A stretch of DNA of 12,314 bases, from assembly GCA_902797565.1 (NCBI GenBank), contig CADBTO010000371.1, positions 1 through 12,314 of the forward strand. The letters run 5' to 3'. The stretch's first letter is position 1. Each line of letters begins with the position of its first letter. Made by a program: the position numbers and the translations under genes. Positions 127-7,639 of this stretch are shown here, piece by piece. The stretch comes from an uncultured Lachnospiraceae bacterium. GTDB lineage: Bacteria; Bacillota; Clostridia; Lachnospirales; Lachnospiraceae. Below the pieces are notes generated by a model, which saw nothing but the letters and a program-made list of their open reading frames with translations, was not told the DNA's origin and ran no database searches.

Positions 127-1092
127 TCATACAGAATAGTAGAGACACTCCGGTAAGATGTGCCGGATCTTTTCAATCGTTCCTTTTGTCTTGTAAAAAT
201 CGCCAAGCTTTCGTTTTGAATATTGGCTGACTGCATTCCTGGTGCAGTCCGTGAGATAATGTGTATAGAATTCTTCCCAACTGAAGTAGCGGATGCTGTC
301 TGCGAAATTCCATGTTTCATCTGTTATGGATTTTGGAACTTCAATCACGCCAGACTTTAATATCAGGTACTCAAAGGATTCTGGCGCATAGATGGATATA
401 GAATGTCCTGATCCTGTAACAAGCTCCATGCAGTCTTGCATTTCTGCCCCAAAAGCGGCTCCATCAACAATTGCAAGAATTTTTTGGCCAGAATGCTGTG
501 CAAGAGCGCGTTTGATGTTGCTTTTTCCATGGGAACTGATACATTTTCCGGGAAATAGCAGGCTGAAAAACTCATTGCCTGCATTGGAATCCTCTGTGAT
601 AATCACTTCCGGGAAAACGGCATCACCCGGCAGTGCTCCATAAATCCGGTACATTTCATTATATACGCGTTTCGGATTCCGATATTTTCCGGATCCGCTG
701 TCCTCACGCAATCCATAGATTTCATCGATGCTGTAAGGCAAATGTGGCAGATTTTCACGGTTGATGATGACATAATAATGATCAGAACCTTTTATCGTAT
801 TGGCAAATTCTTTTGTTCGCAAGAAGTTGTTGCCTTCGTCTATGAAAAAGATCCGCTGCGTAAAAGACTTTGTAAACAGTTTCCAGTTTTCTTCATTCAA
901 CACCGTACATGGTTTGTCACATAGCAGTGTGATACCGGACGATGAAGGATTGCTGTTGTATGCGGTCAGCAGGCGAATCAATTCGGACTTTCCGGAAGCA
1001 CTATCCCCTCTGAAAATCGTGATATTCCGCTGGATAACCAGTCGGTAGTGTACTTTGTTGTTATATAATACAACCTCATATTGTCCAGTCAT
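127..1092 (-). CDS. P-loop ATPase with TOPRIM-like C-terminal half (pair A)
   Basis: A 321-residue protein of unknown function. Seen: a Walker A motif GDSASGKS at residues 29-36, a Walker B-like strand IFFIDE at 81-86, and a following strand with an NRE motif near 111-113, which together form a compact ATPase with no obvious ABC signature. The second half has an invariant ITEDSN (165-170), GKSNI (189-193), IVDGAAFG (208-215) and PESFEYLIL (237-245). Acidic residues E167, D210 and E241 fall where TOPRIM nucleases of the OLD/DUF4435 type carry theirs; this fold assignment is my inference. The start overlaps the upstream DUF4869 stop by 4 nt (ATGA), so translation is probably coupled. It is a diverged paralogue of the protein at 3746-4738. 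Relatives are, as I recall, sometimes labelled 'translation initiation factor 2', which the sequence does not support. Gene call is firm; function is open. Confidence 0.85.
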   Translation of the reverse strand: MTGQYEVVLYNNKVHYRLVIQRNITIFRGDSASGKSELIRLLTAYNSNPSSSGITLLCDKPCTVLNEENWKLFTKSFTQRIFFIDEGNNFLRTKEFANTIKGSDHYYVIINRENLPHLPYSIDEIYGLREDSGSGKYRNPKRVYNEMYRIYGALPGDAVFPEVIITEDSNAGNEFFSLLFPGKCISSHGKSNIKRALAQHSGQKILAIVDGAAFGAEMQDCMELVTGSGHSISIYAPESFEYLILKSGVIEVPKSITDETWNFADSIRYFSWEEFYTHYLTDCTRNAVSQYSKRKLGDFYKTKGTIEKIRHILPECLYYSV

Positions 1093-1559
1093 AACGCATC
1101 TTCCGCCTCATCCAGAAATCCACCAAGAATCACGCTTCGCGCCAGTTCATATTGGGTTGTCACAAGTTTTCCGGTATTGGCGATTCTGATTTGAAAGGTA
1201 TCAGCTTCAAAATGCATGATATGTCCCAGACGGACCAGAATATCCTGCTCCTGTCCGATTTTCAAAAGCCAGGATGCGCAATTATCGCCGCATGCAGAGG
1301 CATTGTAGAGGTGTTCTGGATCATGCGCGATCAGGATCAGGGTCTTGACCCCGCCGGACAAGCGGGTTACCGGGATCGAACCAAGCACAGGGCTGACCAC
1401 CAGATTTGGGCTGACAAGCGTTGACCGGTCAACTGCTTCTACCATTTCTTTTGATAATGGGTCTTCCAACCACTCGTCTTCAAAGGTATTGTCAAAATAC
1501 AGGTCGGGGTCGTCTATATAATTGCTGCTTTTGCATGTTCCATAAAATATACTGAGCAT
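1089..1559 (-). CDS. DUF4869 family protein (pair A)
   Basis: A 156-residue soluble protein that I recognise as DUF4869-like, a family of unknown function in Clostridia. No signal peptide or membrane segment is visible. Motifs shared with the paralogue at 4749-5204 are YFDN (21-24), EDEWLEDP (27-34), VDRS (43-46), SPVLG (56-60), LSGGVK (67-72), CGDNCA (90-95), HIMHFE (113-118) and IAN (126-128). The density of conserved acidic, Cys and Gly residues suggests a real active or binding site rather than a scaffold, but no catalytic activity can be named. The start is supported by GGAAGGAG about 9 nt upstream. Its stop overlaps the start of the P-loop gene by 4 nt, so the two are almost certainly made and used together. 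It is preceded by 78 nt without a gene after the HTH-like gene. Confidence 0.85.
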   Translation of the reverse strand: MLSIFYGTCKSSNYIDDPDLYFDNTFEDEWLEDPLSKEMVEAVDRSTLVSPNLVVSPVLGSIPVTRLSGGVKTLILIAHDPEHLYNASACGDNCASWLLKIGQEQDILVRLGHIMHFEADTFQIRIANTGKLVTTQYELARSVILGGFLDEAEDAL

Positions 1560-1637: not shown

Positions 1638-2186
1638 TCAGGAACCCAACACTGCCTCGCCGTACTCATACAGAATGCCATTGATTTTTTGTATCGGATA
1701 AATCTCGTTCTCGATGCAGAATTTGACAATGATATCCCGTTTTTCACTGGGAGAGAAAGCATATCCGGCACGCTGCAGCAGGTCAATCGTATCTTCCAGA
1801 TTTAACTTCAGCGCGATGGCAAAAGCGAGTACGGTTTTCTTTTTGGGGTGGCAGGCGGGGTTGTTTTTCAGTTTTGAGAAAAAACGCCGGTCGATATGGG
1901 CACGTTTATAGACGTCCACATCGGTCAAGCCACTGCGGTCTATCTGCCTGAACAGTGTTTCATGAAAGGATGCGCCAATCTGGCGGATGAGCATGTCCAA
2001 TGAATGCCTTGTTTCGGAAGAATGTTGCCCGGCAGAAGGCTCTGTGGCATCGCCTTTGACAATGCCGTTCGAAGGGCTTTCATGATCGTGTTCAGCGTGT
2101 TCAGATGGAAGGTTCTCTTGCGGGATAAAATTTTCCTCGATATATGCGTCGAGTGCTTCACGGAGGGTTGGACTTATGTTTGCCAT
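1638..2186 (-). CDS. HTH-like (XRE-type) domain protein
   Basis: A 182-residue protein. The first 60 or so residues are acidic, His- and Glu-rich and look disordered. From about residue 62 onward it matches a helical domain I know from Clostridia: a TDVDVYKRAHIDRRFFSK helix pair (88-105), KKKTVLAFAIALKL (115-128), a LLQRAGYAFS segment (136-145) and a C-terminal IENEIY..INGILYEYG part. In the family this domain is often fused to macro or other effector domains; here it stands with only a short tail. It resembles an XRE-type DNA- or RNA-binding fold, but the binding target is not known. Start: AGGAG 6 nt upstream of the ATG, both inside a 22-bp repeat (2184-2205). It overlaps the end of hepT by 13 nt. 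It may regulate the neighbouring cassette or the toxin-antitoxin genes; this is inference. Confidence 0.8.
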   Translation of the reverse strand: MANISPTLREALDAYIEENFIPQENLPSEHAEHDHESPSNGIVKGDATEPSAGQHSSETRHSLDMLIRQIGASFHETLFRQIDRSGLTDVDVYKRAHIDRRFFSKLKNNPACHPKKKTVLAFAIALKLNLEDTIDLLQRAGYAFSPSEKRDIIVKFCIENEIYPIQKINGILYEYGEAVLGS

Positions 2187-2566
2187 CTGCTACTCCTGCC
2201 CGGCGGCTGCTGGTTTTGCTCGCTTCCTGAAGGGAGGATCTTTTCTATATGATCTTTAAGAAGCGGTATATCGTCGGTAATTGTGCCCCATACGATTTCG
2301 AGATCGATTTCTTCATATTTGTGTGCCATAATGTCTCGGATTCCGCACCAGTCTTTCCATGGTACGTCTGAATGTAGTGCGCGAAAATCCATGGATAGAG
2401 CTTTGCATAATTCGCCAATTTGCAAAATTGACATGGAGCAGTCATTTTGATAGGAGAAATCTGACACAAAGGCCTGATAGGAATCGCCAAAACGGTTTCG
2501 CGATTCTTCTATGTGATTGCAGTATTTCAGCACTTTTTTGAGCACAATGATGTTTTTATCCCTCAT
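2174..2566 (-). CDS. hepT: HepT-like HEPN ribonuclease toxin (DUF86)
   Basis: A 130-residue helical protein of the HEPN/DUF86 family. Seen: the RX4HXY motif R77-DIMA-H82-K-Y84, the signature of HepT RNases, and a typical MSILQIGELCKALS helix at 45-58. In characterised MntA-HepT pairs, HepT is the RNase toxin and the nucleotidyltransferase partner silences it by adding AMP to the motif tyrosine; Y84 is the equivalent here. It lies directly after mntA, overlapping by 11 nt, and overlaps the following HTH gene by 13 nt. The Shine-Dalgarno is weak (AAGG about 11 nt upstream), consistent with translational coupling. The last residues, a Gln/Pro/Arg/Ser-rich tail after about residue 112, do not look like family sequence; the final eight or so are encoded in the 22-bp repeat, so the tail may have been acquired at insertion. 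Confidence 0.87.
   Translation of the reverse strand: MRDKNIIVLKKVLKYCNHIEESRNRFGDSYQAFVSDFSYQNDCSMSILQIGELCKALSMDFRALHSDVPWKDWCGIRDIMAHKYEEIDLEIVWGTITDDIPLLKDHIEKILPSGSEQNQQPPGRSSRWQT
2184..2205. repeat. 22-bp direct repeat, copy 1 (HTH gene RBS and start)
   Basis: This copy is identical over 22 bp to 2897-2918. On the minus strand it contains an AGGAG ribosome binding site, a TAG triplet, CAG and the ATG of the HTH-like gene; it also encodes the C-terminal tail of HepT in another frame. Identity stops at the ATG on one side and just after the GC-rich end on the other. Confidence 0.85.
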
Positions 2567-2846
2567 AGATCAAGACCTTGTCCTTTTCAATCTCTTTTTT
2601 GAAGTCATCGCTCAGGCCACCAGCGGACAATAGGTCTACCGGAAGGTGTAAGGCTTCTTTTGCGTTCCAAAGAATGTTGGACATGCCAAGCAAAGTGAGG
2701 GGTTCTTTTTTTTCGATCAATAGATCGATATCACTGTTTTCTGTTGCGGTGCCTCTGGCGTATGAGCCGAAGAGGAATACCCGTTTGAGTCCATGTGCTT
2801 TTGCAATGGGTTCGATTGCTTTTTGTATGGATGCGATTGTCTGCAT
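2556..2846 (-). CDS. mntA: MntA-like minimal nucleotidyltransferase antitoxin
   Basis: A 96-residue minimal nucleotidyltransferase. The GSX10DXD signature is exact: G27-S28, then D39-I-D41 in NSDIDLLIE, with a third acidic residue in PVDLLS (D71). These are the Mg-ATP ligands of the fold. Established for the family: it AMPylates its HepT partner and so neutralises it. The start at 2846 is chosen because AAGGCGG lies 5 nt upstream and the protein then begins at the usual N-terminal helix. The reading frame is open further upstream to 2975, but that extension is Arg/Ala-rich, overlaps the preceding gene and looks non-coding. The gene overlaps hepT by 11 nt. It sits 56 nt after the TIGR03936 gene, just inside the second copy of the 22-bp repeat. 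Confidence 0.87.
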   Translation of the reverse strand: MQTIASIQKAIEPIAKAHGLKRVFLFGSYARGTATENSDIDLLIEKKEPLTLLGMSNILWNAKEALHLPVDLLSAGGLSDDFKKEIEKDKVLIYEG

Positions 2847-2851
2847 AGGTT

Positions 2852-2858
2852 CCGCCTT
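2852..2858 (-). promoter_or_regulatory. Ribosome binding site of mntA
   Basis: Minus-strand AAGGCGG, 5 nt before the ATG at 2846. It decides the start of the nucleotidyltransferase in favour of the 96-residue form over longer in-frame options. Confidence 0.6.
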
Positions 2859-2896
2859 TCTACGATGCATGGATCTGTTTGCCCGGGGTCGCATAT

Positions 2897-2918
2897 CATC
2901 TGCTACTCCTGCCCGGCG
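2897..2918. repeat. 22-bp direct repeat, copy 2 (TIGR03936 gene end)
   Basis: This is the second exact copy of the repeat at 2184-2205. On the minus strand it encodes the last residues of the TIGR03936 protein and its TAG stop, followed by CAG and an ATG that opens no recognisable gene. The two copies bracket mntA and hepT; the repeat unit is 713 bp from copy to copy. Confidence 0.85.
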
Positions 2919-3718
2919 TCTGCGGATACCTGCCCAAGCGGCTGCAGCCCCTGCGTGCTCCCAGGATCCCCCCAATACAGCTCCATCCGGTGTATCCCAA
3001 GCCGGTAATCCGTTTCCTCATACCCGCACCGCTGCAGAAAGCTGTCCATGAACAGTTCCGGTTTGATGTTGTTCTCACTGCCTGCGGAAAGGAGCAGGCG
3101 GATGGCAGGATCGCCGGTCTGGATCCGGAAGCCGTTCTCTTTCCAATCCGGCAGCTGTTCCTGTAAAAAAGCGGAATCTGCCCCGGAAAGGCCGGAAAGG
3201 TCAAACGAGTATACCAGGGGCAGAAGATCCAGCTGCCGGGTGCTTTTCTTGGTCTTTTTTTCGATCAGCCATTCCGTGGCAGGATCAAACAGCGCGGCTT
3301 TGTTTTGCAGCAGCGTGTCTGAGGAAATATTTCCGTCGCGGAAATACAGCAGGTATGACGCGGCAGAAACCTCTGCCATTGCTTTCCGGGATTTCTTCCC
3401 GGAAATAATCGGGATGTAAACGGCGCGGTCTGCGGCCAGTTCTGATCTGGTACAGGCATTGAGCCGCTCCAGTAATTCTGATTCCGGAAGCTGTTCCAAA
3501 AGGTCGATATCCAGATATTCCCCGGAACTGGTCAGCCCGACGCCCAGCGGCAGAGCGAAGCTGATGACCTGGTGCGGCGAGAATCCTTCAGAATAACGCA
3601 CGGGAAGATTTGCCCTGCGGATTGCTTTCTGGAAATAGCGCATCAGGTCCAGATGCCCGATAAAGCGCAGCACGCCGGATTTCTGGAAACGGATGCGCGC
3701 ACGGTAGATGGTGTTCAT
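2903..3718 (-). CDS. TIGR03936 family radical SAM-associated protein (DUF2344)
   Basis: A 271-residue protein recognised by its N-terminal run RFIGHLDLMRYFQKAIRR (about 18-35), LPVRYSEGFSPH (38-49) and SFALPLGVGLTSSGEYLDI (53-71), typical of the DUF2344/TIGR03936 family. The C-terminal RMELYWG near 246-252 is also characteristic. The molecular role is not established. Family members are usually adjacent or fused to TIGR03960 B12-binding radical SAM proteins; that partner is in this window at 7640-9520 but nearly 4 kb away. The start is supported by AAAGGAG about 7 nt upstream, 27 nt after the stop of the P-loop gene of pair B. The final residues and the stop codon lie in the 22-bp repeat, so the C-terminus has been preserved across the putative insertion point downstream. 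Confidence 0.9.
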   Translation of the reverse strand: MNTIYRARIRFQKSGVLRFIGHLDLMRYFQKAIRRANLPVRYSEGFSPHQVISFALPLGVGLTSSGEYLDIDLLEQLPESELLERLNACTRSELAADRAVYIPIISGKKSRKAMAEVSAASYLLYFRDGNISSDTLLQNKAALFDPATEWLIEKKTKKSTRQLDLLPLVYSFDLSGLSGADSAFLQEQLPDWKENGFRIQTGDPAIRLLLSAGSENNIKPELFMDSFLQRCGYEETDYRLGIHRMELYWGDPGSTQGLQPLGQVSADAGQE

Positions 3719-3745
3719 GAATATGCTCCTTTTTGCGTTTGGTTT

Positions 3746-4738
3746 TTATTTCGGTACTTCCAGCAGATTTCGTACTTCTTCCGGAAGATGCCCACAGATG
3801 TCCCTGGTGACGTCAGTACGCAGAAACCAGGGATGCAGGGTATGCTTCGAATAGGGATGGTCTGTATCTTTCGTGATTTCGGTCAGTCTGTGTGTAAAAT
3901 ATTGTTCATAGCTTTCAAATGCTGCGCTGTCAACATAGTCCCACGGGTGGCGAAGCACGTCCTGTGTCTTCGCGTCAGAGATCTGGCTTGCATGCAGCAT
4001 GAGCCATTCAAAGGATTCCGGCATCCAGATATAGATTCGGATGTCGCTTCTTGTTTGCGCAGCCTGGACACAATCTTCGACCAAAGATCCAAATGCAGCG
4101 CCATCCACAATAAACATGGTATTGTGCGGTGTGGTGACGATCTCCTGTGGGATACTTGAATTCCCGGATGCGCTTGCCACTTGTTTTTCTTTTAATACGT
4201 TGGCATAAAACTGGAAACCGGAATTGGAATCCTCTGTAACGACAACCGCAGTATGACCGTTTTCTGTGAACGGGAAATTGTGGTACAGTTCTCGAAACTC
4301 ATGACAAACTTCTTTTGTACCGGCACGCTTTCCCGTGGAAATAATTTCGTATATTTCATGGATACTATAAGGAAGCATTTTCAGTGGAGAACGCGTTACG
4401 AAGACAAAATAATTTCCGGACGCCTTCAGATAGCCTGCAAATTCTTCCGAGAAAATAAAAGGATTATTTTCCTCGATAAAAATAACGGTATCATGCAGCG
4501 GGAATAGTACATCCGTCCATGCTCTGCCGGGTTCGTTTCGGAGGTATACATAAAAGCTGCAGTCAGCAGTCACGCTGTATCCGGATTGACGTCCTGTACG
4601 GAGATATTCGTACAGGATGGATAACAGCGTTGTTTTCCCGGTAGCGCTGTCACCTTTGATGATGGTAATATTTCGTTTGATGAGAAAATCAAAAGATACA
4701 CGCTTGCTTCTGACAGAAAACTGATAGCTGCCTTTCAT
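3746..4738 (-). CDS. P-loop ATPase with TOPRIM-like C-terminal half (pair B)
   Basis: A 330-residue paralogue of the protein at 127-1092, alike along its whole length but diverged (by eye roughly a third identical). Walker A is GDSATGKT (29-36). The Walker B-like strand is VIFIEE (85-90), where the usual Asp is Glu. A VTRSPLKMLPYS segment follows (114-125). The C-terminal half repeats the conserved set: VTEDSNSG (167-174), GNSSI (192-196), IVDGAAFG (210-217) and PESFEWLML (240-248), then FTHRLTEITK and YSKHTL. I read this half as TOPRIM-like; the residues concerned are E169, D212 and E244. The gene begins 10 nt after the DUF4869 stop; the Shine-Dalgarno GAGGT overlaps that stop codon, which implies coupled expression. 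Function is unknown. Confidence 0.85.
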   Translation of the reverse strand: MKGSYQFSVRSKRVSFDFLIKRNITIIKGDSATGKTTLLSILYEYLRTGRQSGYSVTADCSFYVYLRNEPGRAWTDVLFPLHDTVIFIEENNPFIFSEEFAGYLKASGNYFVFVTRSPLKMLPYSIHEIYEIISTGKRAGTKEVCHEFRELYHNFPFTENGHTAVVVTEDSNSGFQFYANVLKEKQVASASGNSSIPQEIVTTPHNTMFIVDGAAFGSLVEDCVQAAQTRSDIRIYIWMPESFEWLMLHASQISDAKTQDVLRHPWDYVDSAAFESYEQYFTHRLTEITKDTDHPYSKHTLHPWFLRTDVTRDICGHLPEEVRNLLEVPK

Positions 4739-4748
4739 TTTATTTACC

Positions 4749-5204
4749 TCACATCACACCTTGCATTTCACTTGTCACACGAAGCAGTTCCTGCACATAG
4801 TCTTTTCTGGTGCAGACTGTCTTTTTATGATTTGCGATTTCGATTTCAAAGGGTTCCTCAAATTGCATGATATGCTGGAGATAAACGTCCAGTTCCTTGC
4901 CCTTTGCAATTTCCAGAACCCATCTGGCACAGTTATCCCCGCAATTGGAAAGGTCATAGATAAAGGAGTCGTCTTTTTCCATCAGGATCAGGACCTTGAC
5001 CCCGCCGGATAATTCCCGGGGCGTGATGGCACCCAGCACAGGGCTTTCAATGATGTGCGGAGAGATGACTTCGGAACGGTCAACGTCACGGATCATCGCC
5101 TGGATGAAGGGATCTTCCATCCATTCATCTTCATACACATTGTCAAAGTATGCGGGGGCATCAATCATATGGTCGATATCGCTATAGTACCAGATATGCA
5201 GCAT
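4749..5204 (-). CDS. DUF4869 family protein (pair B)
   Basis: A 151-residue paralogue of the protein at 1089-1559. It shares MLxIxY at the start, YFDN (19-22), EDEWMEDP (25-32), VDRS (41-44), SPVLG (54-58), LSGGVK (65-70), CGDNCA (88-93), HIMQFE (111-116) and IAN (123-125). The two copies are clearly more alike in these blocks than in their linkers and C-termini. No membrane segment or signal peptide is seen. The start has a very strong AGAAGGAGG about 6 nt upstream, sitting in the 15-nt gap after the FtsH-like gene, so it is likely expressed from the same transcript and at a higher rate. It is followed 10 nt later by the P-loop gene of pair B. No activity can be assigned. Confidence 0.87.
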   Translation of the reverse strand: MLHIWYYSDIDHMIDAPAYFDNVYEDEWMEDPFIQAMIRDVDRSEVISPHIIESPVLGAITPRELSGGVKVLILMEKDDSFIYDLSNCGDNCARWVLEIAKGKELDVYLQHIMQFEEPFEIEIANHKKTVCTRKDYVQELLRVTSEMQGVM

Positions 5205-5219
5205 GGGTATCCTCCTTCT

Positions 5220-6494
5220 TTACCTTCTCGCTTCCATCCGCTGGGGTTCTGTGCCCCGCTCCCGCCGCCCGCCGGGATTGCCCAGCTGCAGGAGCCCCAT
5301 TTTGCGGCAGGCATCCGCGATGCAGTCCACATCCAGTTCCTGTTTCCCTTCGGAAAGCATCACCTGTGCGGATTCATTGAGGATGGTTTCAATCGTCGCG
5401 CAGCTGAGCCCCCCGAAGCCGTGTGCCAGCGCATGGATCCGGATGCTGGGCGCAAGCTTCAGGCCTTTTGTATAGAGGCGGATCAGTTCTTCCCGTGTTT
5501 CCTGGTCCGGGTTCGGAATCTTGTATTTGAGGTCGAAGCGGCCCGGGCGCACCAGGGCTGCATCCAAAGACGCATAGGAATTGGTTGCGGCGATGACCAG
5601 CACCCCGTCCTCCTGCGCAAAGCCGTCCATCTCATTCAGCAGTACCGTGATCATCCGGTTGTTCTCTTTGTCAAGTCCGGTGCCTGCATAGCTTCGGCGT
5701 TCCCCGATGCCATCAAACTCGTCAATGAAGATGATGCAGGGTTTGTGCCGCCGGGCTTTTTTGAACAGCTGTTTGATCTTCCGGGGACCGATGGACATCA
5801 GCATACTCTGGAAGTCCGCACCTTTTGCCGCAATGAAGTGTACGCCGGCTTCTTCCGCAAGCGCCCGGGCAAAGAGCGTCTTCCCGTTTCCGGGAGGGCC
5901 TTCCAGAATGATCCCTTTAGTGGGCCGGATGCCCTGTTTCCGGTATTTGTCCGCGTGTTTCAGGATGTCCACGGCAGTGCGCAGCTCCTGTTTCTGCCGC
6001 TCCATTCCGGCAATATCTGAAAAATGCACGCCGGTATGCCGCACGAGCGGGAACGAGCGGAAGAAGTCCCCGGCGAATTTATAGGCCAGGCCAATCAAAA
6101 ACAGGACGAACAATGCGTCAAATGCCAGGTCCAAAATTGCTGTCCAGCTGGACTGCCGGGCTTCCTGCACCGTTACGCCTGCGAGCAGCAGGCGTTCTTT
6201 CAGGTCGATGGCACCGGGATTTTCTGTCTCATAGGCCTGTGGATCATTTGCTTTTCGAAATTCCAGCCTGCTTTGCGTAATCAGGACGGACTCGATGTTT
6301 CCGTCTTCCAGCTGTTTGTGAAATTCTGCATAGGGGACAGCCGTCCTGTCTGCAGGCGGGTTCCATATGCTTTTGCCCCAGAGGACCGCCGCTGCCAGTG
6401 CACCTGCGGCAAGCAGCAGGCAGACAATGGCGATGATCCGCTGCCGTGTTTTTTGTTTGATTCGTTGTTTTTCCATTCCGGGTTTTCTCTCCAT
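5220..6494 (-). CDS. Membrane FtsH-like AAA ATPase lacking the protease domain
   Basis: A 424-residue protein with FtsH layout: a basic N-terminus, TM1 about 20-40, a small extracytoplasmic domain (about 45-112), TM2 about 118-140, then an AAA module. Seen: Walker A GPPGNGKT (199-206), Walker B IIFIDEFD (254-261), sensor AATN (302-305), and second-region-of-homology arginines R316 and R319 in LVRPGRFD. The protein ends soon after the AAA lid; full FtsH is over 600 residues and has an M41 protease with HEXXH, absent here. The pore-loop position of FtsH (Met-Phe-Val-Gly) reads MLMS (231-234), so the gripping Phe is lost. It could be an unfoldase or remodeller that feeds another protein, or a non-threading ATPase. 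The first ATG (6494) has no good Shine-Dalgarno; Met7 (6476), behind GGAG, is an alternative start. It is the first gene of the left minus-strand unit. Confidence 0.88.
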   Translation of the reverse strand: MERKPGMEKQRIKQKTRQRIIAIVCLLLAAGALAAAVLWGKSIWNPPADRTAVPYAEFHKQLEDGNIESVLITQSRLEFRKANDPQAYETENPGAIDLKERLLLAGVTVQEARQSSWTAILDLAFDALFVLFLIGLAYKFAGDFFRSFPLVRHTGVHFSDIAGMERQKQELRTAVDILKHADKYRKQGIRPTKGIILEGPPGNGKTLFARALAEEAGVHFIAAKGADFQSMLMSIGPRKIKQLFKKARRHKPCIIFIDEFDGIGERRSYAGTGLDKENNRMITVLLNEMDGFAQEDGVLVIAATNSYASLDAALVRPGRFDLKYKIPNPDQETREELIRLYTKGLKLAPSIRIHALAHGFGGLSCATIETILNESAQVMLSEGKQELDVDCIADACRKMGLLQLGNPGGRRERGTEPQRMEARR

Positions 6495-6560
6495 GCGTTT
6501 TCTAAATGATATAGGTTTCTAATGCTTTCAGACACTAATCATGCTCTTCAGCAATTCCCC

Positions 6561-6589
6561 AGTCTAGCATATCTTGGGATGGATTGCAA
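6561..6589 (-). promoter_or_regulatory. Candidate sigma-A promoter for the FtsH-like/DUF4869 unit
   Basis: Reading the minus strand: TTGCAA, a 17-nt spacer, then TAGACT preceded by TGC (an extended -10 element). Both hexamers match the consensus at four of six positions. The -10 lies 66 nt before the first ATG of the FtsH-like gene. This is sequence matching only. Confidence 0.45.
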
Positions 6590-6630
6590 GCCAGGCCTGG
6601 TATTTGCCGTCCGCTAATTCGTGTTTCCTG

Positions 6631-6659
6631 TTGACTTGCTGCGAAAAGTATGAGAAAAT
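6631..6659 (+). promoter_or_regulatory. Candidate sigma-A promoter for the GNAT gene
   Basis: TTGACT and GAAAAT with 17 nt between them; the -35 matches five of six consensus positions and the -10 four of six. The -10 ends 29 nt before the ATG at 6689. It lies back to back with the candidate promoter of the minus-strand unit. Confidence 0.45.
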
Positions 6660-6676
6660 AACAGAAATGAAAAATG

Positions 6677-6682
6677 AGGAGG
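6677..6682 (+). promoter_or_regulatory. Ribosome binding site of the GNAT gene
   Basis: A perfect AGGAGG, 6 nt before the ATG at 6689. It fixes that start and rules out the in-frame ATG at 6674, which lies upstream of it. Confidence 0.8.
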
Positions 6683-6688
6683 AACAAG

Positions 6689-7567
6689 ATGAACGAGGAA
6701 CAATACCAGATCTTCCTGGTACCATCGGAACTGGTGCCGGTTTTTTCAAAGGCGGTTCCGCCGGAAGTGGCTGCGCGGGAGCCGGTATATTTTGGCGCAG
6801 AAGAGACCGGGACGAACACGGTGGCGGGCGTGCTGGCACTGGACAGTGTCCGGGATGGATGGGAGATCCTGTATATCGAAGTGTTTGCTGATCATCGCAG
6901 GAAAGGCATTGGACAGCAGCTGGCTGCATGTGCCGCGGATTATGCGCGGGCGATGCTGGTGGAAACGCTGTATGCTTCGTATACCTCCTTTCCGGAAGAA
7001 GGAAAGGCGCTCTCCCGCTTTTTTGAATCGGCAGGTTTTGAGGAAGAGGCATCCGGCGAGATCCGGCGCTGCCGGCTGGAGCATATTTCAGATGAGATCC
7101 TGCGTCGGCCGGTTCGGGGTGGGAGCCATCAGGTGATTCCGCTTAAGATGGCAAGTTCCGGAAAATGGCTTGCGCTGGCGCAGCTGATTGAAGAACGTGC
7201 AGCTGCAGATGAAAACCCGGAAGGGAATGTCTATCTGCGTCTGGATAGAATGGATGACTTTGATCTGGAGATTTCCATGCTGAGCCTGGATCTGGAAGGA
7301 CGCCCGGAAGGATGCGTGCTGGCAAGGCCATTCCATGCAGATGGCTATCTGCTTTCGTACCTGTTTTCCGTTGGCGGCGCGCAGGCACCGTTCATCCTTC
7401 AGGGTATGATTTCTGAGGCATATCATATGCTCCTGGAACGCACGGGCAGGAAGGGCTGGCTTTATGCGGATGTGCAGAACCGCATAGCTGCAGATCTTAT
7501 GTCCCGTGTTTCATCCGGGCAGGATATGCTGTATGCGAAGTCGATCGATATGATGCGCCTGGTATAA
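6689..7567 (+). CDS. Tandem-GNAT family acetyltransferase
   Basis: A 292-residue protein, the only plus-strand gene in the window. The N-terminal half is a GNAT domain with acetyl-CoA motif A: LYIEVFADHRRKGIGQQL (61-78), where R70..G73-I-G75 is the pyrophosphate-binding loop. An FFESAGFEEE segment (111-120) is the usual motif-B end. Residues about 148-292 look like a second GNAT-like domain: a WLALAQLIEE helix (160-169), a GCVLARP strand (208-214), and the ADVQNRIAADLM region (260-271). Its own acetyl-CoA loop is poorly preserved, so it may serve substrate binding or dimerisation. Established for the family: transfer of acetyl from acetyl-CoA to an amine; the substrate here is unknown. It has its own likely promoter and converges on the radical SAM gene, with a hairpin between the two. 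Confidence 0.87.
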   Translation: MNEEQYQIFLVPSELVPVFSKAVPPEVAAREPVYFGAEETGTNTVAGVLALDSVRDGWEILYIEVFADHRRKGIGQQLAACAADYARAMLVETLYASYTSFPEEGKALSRFFESAGFEEEASGEIRRCRLEHISDEILRRPVRGGSHQVIPLKMASSGKWLALAQLIEERAAADENPEGNVYLRLDRMDDFDLEISMLSLDLEGRPEGCVLARPFHADGYLLSYLFSVGGAQAPFILQGMISEAYHMLLERTGRKGWLYADVQNRIAADLMSRVSSGQDMLYAKSIDMMRLV

Positions 7568-7595
7568 GGCATTTGGTATAAGACGTGTCTGGAAG

Positions 7596-7639
7596 CGGGC
7601 CTTGCCCTACGCGTGATGCCACGCATAGGGCAAAGCCCG
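7596..7639. terminator. Long hairpin between convergent genes, probable bidirectional terminator
   Basis: Arms at 7596-7613 and 7622-7639 pair over 18 positions with two mismatches, around an 8-nt loop. It sits 28 nt after the GNAT stop and directly against the stop codon of the radical SAM gene. On the plus strand it is followed by TTATT; on the minus strand the tail is only weakly T-rich. Confidence 0.65.

What the first reader, a model, noticed from the sequence alone, without database searches (positions are those of the whole stretch)
127..1559. Two-gene cassette DUF4869 + P-loop/TOPRIM-like protein, present twice
Pair A (127-1559) and pair B (3746-5204) have the same gene order, strand and tight spacing (4-nt overlap in A, 10-nt gap in B). 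Both proteins are conserved in blocks, yet the pairs are well diverged, so this is not a fresh duplication; both copies seem to be kept under selection. A fixed pair of an unknown protein with an ATPase is the usual look of a functional two-component system. Placement beside an MntA-HepT module and a lone AAA protein hints at a defence or stress role, but that is a hypothesis.
Basis: partly seen in the sequence, partly recalled or inferred. Interest (0 to 1): 0.75.

Follow-up and report, generated by a model that had tools for sequence, protein, structure and literature searches.

The report
Split ABC-ATPase–TOPRIM cassette in gut Clostridia
Two neighbouring genes of unknown function, carried three times by this gut bacterium, look like the two complementary halves of one ATP-driven switch attached to a nuclease-like domain, possibly an unrecognised relative of known virus-defence machines.

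The parts
1089..1559 (-). DUF4869-A (156 aa): proposed Walker-A-less ABC-type head. LSGG signature at residues 67-70, helix 69-79; degenerate Walker B position (84-88, no DE); D-loop-like CGDNC 90-94
127..1092 (-). P-loop/TOPRIM-A (321 aa): ABC-type nucleotide-binding core about 1-153 (Walker A 29-36, Walker B 82-86, no signature) plus TOPRIM-like domain about 163-303 (E167, D168, D210)
4749..5204 (-). DUF4869-B (151 aa)
3746..4738 (-). P-loop/TOPRIM-B (330 aa); some relatives are named 'translation initiation factor 2' in NCBI records, without support here
5220..6494 (-). FtsH_ext + AAA protein without a matched peptidase domain, 15 nt upstream of DUF4869-B; lies in the same operon interruption (companion, not shown to be part of the cassette)
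2556..2975 (-). MntA-like nucleotidyltransferase (companion gene, not part of the cassette)
2174..2566 (-). HepT-like HEPN protein (companion gene, not part of the cassette)
1638..2186 (-). HTH-like protein upstream of pair A; homologous to the HTH half of a macro-HTH protein beside a three-gene relative (L080)
2903..3718 (-). DUF2344 gene of the his - radical SAM - DUF2344 operon, with the two inserts on either side of it

Best explanation
The cassette is a miniature, split ABC ATPase coupled to a TOPRIM-like effector. The P-loop domain of the larger protein supplies the motifs that act in cis on ATP (Walker A and B). DUF4869 supplies the motifs that act in trans (signature LSGG and D-loop), so one composite ATP site forms only when the two proteins meet. 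Shown here: complementary motifs, conserved pairing, module fission and fusion, ABC-type resemblance of the P-loop domain. Supported but weak: ABC-type fold of DUF4869, TOPRIM homology of the C-terminal domain. Inferred: ATP-dependent docking of DUF4869 holds the TOPRIM domain in check (or clamps nucleic acid), and a trigger such as infection or nucleotide depletion releases it to cut nucleic acid and stop the cell, as in PARIS or Gabija. The system would then be an OLD-like anti-phage cassette, mainly of Lachnospiraceae.
Confidence: 0.5

Rival explanations
1. Toxin-antitoxin-like module: the P-loop/TOPRIM protein is a growth-blocking toxin and DUF4869 a dedicated neutraliser or chaperone with no catalytic role; the ABC resemblance of DUF4869 is a common alpha/beta arrangement.
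Against: Gene order is reversed at L015/L050 and L021/L055 and differs among three-gene forms; fusions exist (P0307, L093); invariant LSG in 23 of 23 aligned DUF4869 is unexplained by a passive antitoxin.
Confidence: 0.25
2. Accessory nucleic-acid repair or segregation factor (Rad50/SMC/RecN-like small clamp) with an inactive TOPRIM domain, serving the host and not defence.
For: Best fold neighbours of DUF4869 include SMC, Rad50 and RecN heads; TOPRIM DxD is degraded; mostly ordinary neighbours.
Against: Present in only 42 of 392 genomes of the order and absent from the congener in that sample, 1 of 398 in the phylum sample, frequent decay, insertion around an operon gene: not the behaviour of a core repair gene.
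Confidence: 0.12
3. A selfish or hitch-hiking cassette whose own activity (TOPRIM) moves it, without benefit to the host.
For: Two-gene unit alone between rapZ and whiA (L106), and inserts around DUF2344 in the window; a tyrosine integrase gene next to it in L041 and L052.
Against: No flanking direct or inverted repeats stand out at five copies; by reading, most copies have no recombinase beside them; TOPRIM lacks a canonical catalytic set.
Confidence: 0.08

Closest known systems
OLD-family nucleases (Class 1 TsOLD, Class 2 GajA of Gabija, Class 3 Retron-Eco8 effector)
   Same: ABC-type ATPase N-terminal to a TOPRIM domain; Foldseek rank 1 is TsOLD, Retron-Eco8 rank 12 and VIA rank 3; P-loop profiles match OLD and AAA_21 P-loops
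   Different: Clearly smaller (about 325 aa against 521-744 aa for the OLD proteins); no signature in the ATPase core, which sits on a second protein instead; TOPRIM DxD is DxA; no helicase or retron partner seen in the window
PARIS (AriA ABC ATPase sensor + AriB TOPRIM tRNase)
   Same: ATPase and TOPRIM can be separate genes or fused; DUF4435, recalled as AriB's family, is the nearest TOPRIM profile found (E 0.0016); AriA among DUF4869's fold matches
   Different: In PARIS one ABC ATPase, AriA, does the ATPase part; here the ATPase itself is split and the TOPRIM is fused to the Walker A half
Septu PtuA and SMC/Rad50 ABC heads
   Same: Best fold matches of the DUF4869 model; signature followed by helix, strand, D-loop helix, strand
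   Different: DUF4869 has no Walker A or catalytic Walker B and is about 150 aa without coiled coil
Asymmetric ABC heterodimers with one degenerate site (transporters, SMC1/3; recalled, not tested)
   Same: One composite site active, the other degenerate
   Different: There both chains keep a whole NBD; here each chain would keep only its cis or its trans motifs

Membership tests
Pfam PF16163 (DUF4869) | Match over the curated cut-off (28.9 bits) | tested here: met
   153.6 and 157.8 bits; third copy 169.2 bits
ABC-type ATPase (P-loop domain) | Walker A and Walker B on an ABC-type core | tested here: met
ABC-type ATPase (P-loop domain) | Own signature motif between Walker A and B | tested here: not met
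   LSxG in 0 of 238 within the first 155 aa; about 45 residues between Walker A and B
ABC-type ATPase (DUF4869) | Signature motif LSGG(Q) | tested here: met
   LSxG in 120 of 120 homologues; L, S, G in 23 of 23 diverse rows, second G in 22 of 23
ABC-type ATPase (DUF4869) | Walker A | tested here: not met
   0 of 120, 0 of 23 and 0 of 12
ABC-type ATPase (DUF4869) | ABC head fold | tested here: inconclusive
OLD-family nuclease | Complete ABC ATPase and TOPRIM on one chain | tested here: not met
   Signature absent from the ATPase core of the P-loop chain; but the OLD controls also lack plain LSxG (0 of 15), so this rests on the missing stretch between Walker A and B too
OLD-family nuclease | TOPRIM metal ligands E and DxD (E377, D431, D433 in TsOLD) | tested here: not met
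   E167 and D210 in 24 of 24, but A212 at the second D in 24 of 24
PARIS (AriAB) | AriB-type DUF4435 TOPRIM | tested here: inconclusive
   hhalign E 0.0016 for the fused form, 0.075 for the stand-alone form, against 4 DUF4435 sequences; DUF4435 not reached by Pfam scan
PARIS (AriAB) | Full ABC ATPase AriA encoded alongside | tested here: not met
   No AriA-like gene among the window ORFs scanned
Gabija | UvrD-like helicase GajB next to the ATPase-TOPRIM gene | tested here: not met
   None among the window genes; a recurring UvrD-like family (by reading) within 5 genes at 3 of 60 loci (L071, L077, L097)
Anti-phage defence system | Protection against phage | not testable with these tools
   needs plaque assays
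Toxin-antitoxin module | Effector toxic without its partner | tested here: inconclusive
   Only indirect: decay asymmetry 8 to 0, p 0.048 by gene length alone

The most novel reading that the evidence does not exclude
An ABC ATPase reduced to two obligate half-ATPases: one small protein keeps only the cis-acting motifs (Walker A/B), the other only the trans-acting ones (signature, D-loop), giving a single composite ATP site per heterodimer that gates a TOPRIM effector; a phage that carries DUF4869 alone would use it as a decoy subunit against the system.
Probability: 0.35. Interest if true: 0.82.

Novelty: new variant of a known kind. Interest (0 to 1): 0.6.

Why it matters
It would put a function on a Pfam family of unknown function with thousands of members, correct a misleading database name ('translation initiation factor 2'), and add a split architecture to the ABC ATPase-TOPRIM defence machines. 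Because cis and trans motifs sit on different small proteins, the cassette would be a clean system to test how ATP engagement gates a TOPRIM effector, by mixing and mutating two chains.

Tried and rejected
Rejected: (1) MntA-HepT as part of the system: 7 HepT-like matches in 40 genomes, two near a pair, one of them the window itself; a different MNT-HEPN gene pair follows the cassette in L072, left as a note. (2) A conserved third gene in the neighbourhood: clustering of neighbours within 5 genes at 60 loci gave as largest family 7 loci (glycosyltransferases by reading). (3) The five 'Bacteriophage sp.' records as phage copies: the four that I read are bacterial by content (Pfam: rapZ and whiA in L106, cas3 and cse1 in L107; a purL-like gene in L108 and a coaBC-like gene in L109); the fifth (MT839573) was not read. 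(4) Terminal repeats around the cassette: none convincing in five copies. (5) Co-fold through the natural fusion P0307: the aligner placed the DUF4869 rows on the wrong half of the fusion, and so did my local trials of three compositions with three settings (the four rows printed each), so the two parts were predicted apart and no complex was modelled. P0307 may itself come from a frameshift near the DUF4869 stop; L093, with a linker, is the better fusion. (6) Defence islands: AAA_21 ATPases (E <= 1e-14, 45 merged loci) within 25 kb of a cassette 5 seen, 0.95 expected (p 0.003), within 10 kb 2 against 0.38 (p 0.056); HsdS (55 merged loci) 1 against 1.16 and 0.46. Positions were rounded to kb and four tests were made, so I count this as weak.

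Led nowhere: the search for related loci on genome contigs gave 2 loci only; the solved-structure sequence searches gave no relative, only P-loop matches of unrelated proteins and a few chance rows.

Full report
OBSERVATION. The two pairs are present as described. Pair A: DUF4869 1089-1559 and P-loop 127-1092, 4-nt overlap; pair B: 4749-5204 and 3746-4738, 10-nt gap; all on the minus strand. The DUF4869 proteins score 153.6 and 157.8 bits against PF16163, cut-off 28.9. A and B are diverged paralogues: 34% identity for the large protein, 45% for the small. The genome has a third intact pair on contig C172 and a P-loop fragment on C137.

HOW COMMON. PF16163 matches 42 of 392 genomes of the order, 39 over the cut-off; 36 of the 42 are of the window's own family. 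In a phylum-wide sample it matches 1 of 398, the window's own genome. The protein database holds at least 3571 relatives of P-loop-B at E <= 0.001 and at least 7998 of DUF4869 (capped). Names given by sources are mostly Lachnospiraceae; plasmid-collection copies are in Ruminococcus albus, Agathobacter rectalis and Collinsella aerofaciens, an actinomycete, so the cassette has probably crossed phyla. Pattern scans of 2.9 million viral contigs, two short peptide patterns each and so not sensitive, found one P-loop locus and three DUF4869 loci, one contig being common to both.

FIXED PAIR. Of 75 DUF4869 matches in the 392 genomes, 58 have a P-loop match within 500 nt, all on the same strand; of 74 P-loop matches, 60 have DUF4869 within 500 nt. 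I dropped 17 further P-loop rows (E 5e-6 to 1e-3, short matches around Walker A in unrelated frames) before this count. Several unpaired rows are fragments or belong to G249, a divergent genome. Across 21 pairs the two distance matrices correlate (r 0.69; permuted maximum 0.375; p 0.0001). This does not correct for shared species history; that the three pairs of this one genome are 32-40% and 41-44% identical among themselves shows old divergence inside one genome.

THREE MODULES. Weak DUF4869 matches led to a second form with separate genes: a TOPRIM-like protein (150-280 aa), a DUF4869-like protein (133-151 aa) and a P-loop protein (133-148 aa), 10 sets at 9 loci (L080 twice, L081-L088). The order is TOPRIM-DUF4869-P-loop in five sets and DUF4869-P-loop-TOPRIM in five. 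Other loci of this group are incomplete (L079 and L089 without TOPRIM, L090 and L091 P-loop only). Profile comparison maps each part onto the two-gene form: DUF4869 E 1.4e-13 over 134 columns, P-loop E 2e-17 over 123, TOPRIM-like E 3e-8 onto residues 163-303. In L093 DUF4869 and the P-loop domain are one 368-aa frame, and in P0307 DUF4869 is fused to the whole partner (a frameshift is possible there). In L050 and L055 the two genes are in reverse order. Fission, fusion and reshuffling of the same three parts argue that they work in one complex.

The motif table is the cleanest result. DUF4869 homologues: Walker A 0 of 120, LSxG 120 of 120. P-loop homologues: Walker A 238 of 238, LSxG 0 of 238 in the first 155 aa; LSxG does occur in 72 of 238 elsewhere in the chain, outside the ATPase core. 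These are the best-scoring hits of three searches, so not the full diversity; the sets taken from loci agree (DUF4869 23 and 12: Walker A 0, LSxG 22 and 12; P-loop 24 and 14: Walker A all, LSxG 0 in the core). P0241 (internally repeated) and P0307 were left out. Control: AAA_21 proteins have Walker A in 26 of 26 and plain LSxG in 4 of 26, OLD proteins 15 of 15 and 0 of 15, so a canonical LSGG makes DUF4869 look like SMC/Rad50/transporter heads and not like OLD in particular. In ABC dimers the signature and D-loop act in trans, Walker A and B in cis (PMC7049728, passages read). The cassette thus seems to put the cis motifs on one chain and the trans motifs on the other.

The C-terminal domain has a TOPRIM-like pattern: strand, E167 in 24 of 24 (VEG in the divergent stand-alone forms L087/L088), then a strand and D210 in 24 of 24, but A for the second acid of DxD in 24 of 24. 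Against 4 DUF4435 sequences it gives E 0.0016 over 114 columns (reversed 0.82); that AriB is of this family is recalled. The stand-alone form gives 0.075, and nothing against OLD (0.91). I call it TOPRIM-like; nuclease activity is open.

SURROUNDINGS. Twelve congeners have a DUF2344 match; in the 10 whose stretches I fetched hisD-hisB-hisIE-radical SAM-DUF2344 are contiguous and no cassette gene was found; in 9 of the 10 an RNase E/G-like gene follows by my reading, checked by Pfam in one. In the window the stretch 3719-7639 (pair B, the FtsH-like gene and an opposite GNAT gene) separates radical SAM from DUF2344, and the MntA/HepT-like and HTH genes and pair A follow DUF2344 up to the contig end. 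Elsewhere the cassette mostly sits between ordinary genes, for example between rapZ and whiA in L106. A tyrosine integrase gene adjoins it in L041 and L052. Scattered defence-like neighbours exist: an AbiL-like ATPase gene in L041, Cas3/Cse1 in L107, MNT-HEPN in L072, a sub-cut-off TIR match in L095. They do not amount to a rule: AAA_21 is enriched within 25 kb (5 seen, 0.95 expected, p 0.003), not clearly within 10 kb (p 0.056), HsdS not at all.

DECAY AND PHAGE. Reading the tables, without G249, G257 and the three-gene type, 30 loci have both genes intact; 8 have intact DUF4869 and a broken P-loop gene (G180:C64, G283:C12, G341:C56, G120:C17, G166:C49, G118:C19, G083:C12, G389:C17); 3 have the P-loop domain only (G380:C29, G158:C2, G343:C162); 4 have DUF4869 alone (G369:C138 near a contig end, G246:C1:2189459, G166:C57, G062:C18); G329:C2 has both broken; none has an intact P-loop/TOPRIM gene with broken DUF4869. 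Further broken or partial DUF4869 copies lie near the G354 and G381 pairs and in G334:C61. By gene length alone 8 of 8 has p 0.048 and 12 of 12 p 0.0105. This hints that the larger protein is the costly one. A 126-kb viral contig (a phage-type DNA polymerase, phrog_405, E 4e-185) has two DUF4869 genes and no P-loop gene in the 16 kb read; a decoy role is a guess. The other viral contigs: one prophage-like with an intact DUF4869 and a broken P-loop gene, one with a broken DUF4869.

LITERATURE. 'DUF4869' occurs in 0 of 5.39 million held papers. Searches for ABC ATPase/TOPRIM defence and split or signature-related ABC pairs showed no such system in their listings (listings and abstract starts seen). 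The OLD review names PARIS as the class with ATPase and TOPRIM on separate genes (PMC10568477, passages). Most subscription papers and all preprints are outside the library.

VERDICT. A real, widespread, apparently unstudied cassette; best read as a split, miniature relative of ABC ATPase-TOPRIM machines. Not filed as OLD, PARIS or Gabija, because defining features were tested and not met. The ATP-site model is testable; defence is the likeliest role but rests on architecture and spread, not on context.

Noticed in passing
L101 6892-7431 and 7668-8444 (+): Two intact DUF4869 genes without P-loop partner in the 16 kb read of a 126-kb phage contig (IMGVR_UViG_3300028914_000064); the second has an N-terminal extension, as has the bacterial L066 copy (DUF4869 at residues 132-256 of 268).
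   Followed up: partly
window 1638-2186 (-) and L080 4424-5281 (-): The HTH-like protein upstream of pair A is homologous (E 3e-26) to the HTH half of a macro-HTH protein beside a three-gene relative of the system; no macro domain was matched in the window copy.
   Followed up: partly
window 5220-6494 (-): FtsH-like protein with FtsH_ext and AAA but no matched peptidase domain, 15 nt upstream of DUF4869-B; PADLOC IetA models match its AAA (E 4e-37).
   Followed up: no
P0008, P0025, P0045 and others: NCBI names the P-loop/TOPRIM protein 'translation initiation factor 2'; no family or fold match found here supports that.
   Followed up: partly
L106-L109 (MT835885, MT835722, MT836187, MT836825): Records deposited as 'Bacteriophage sp.' that carry bacterial genes (rapZ, whiA, purL-like, coaBC-like) or type I-E cas genes beside the cassette.
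   Followed up: partly
L072 5649-6424 (-): An MNT-HEPN gene pair directly downstream of a DUF4869/P-loop pair, with a different HEPN family (PF05168) from the window's HepT-like gene.
   Followed up: no
L041 16724-18157 (-) and L052 10585-11985 (-): Tyrosine integrase genes next to DUF4869 in two genomes, each with a further DNA-binding-type gene beside it (HTH_17 in L052).
   Followed up: partly
G249 (8.8 Mb, 730 contigs): L078, L092-L094, L096: One divergent genome of the order with ten DUF4869 matches, one of them fused to a P-loop domain (L093).
   Followed up: partly
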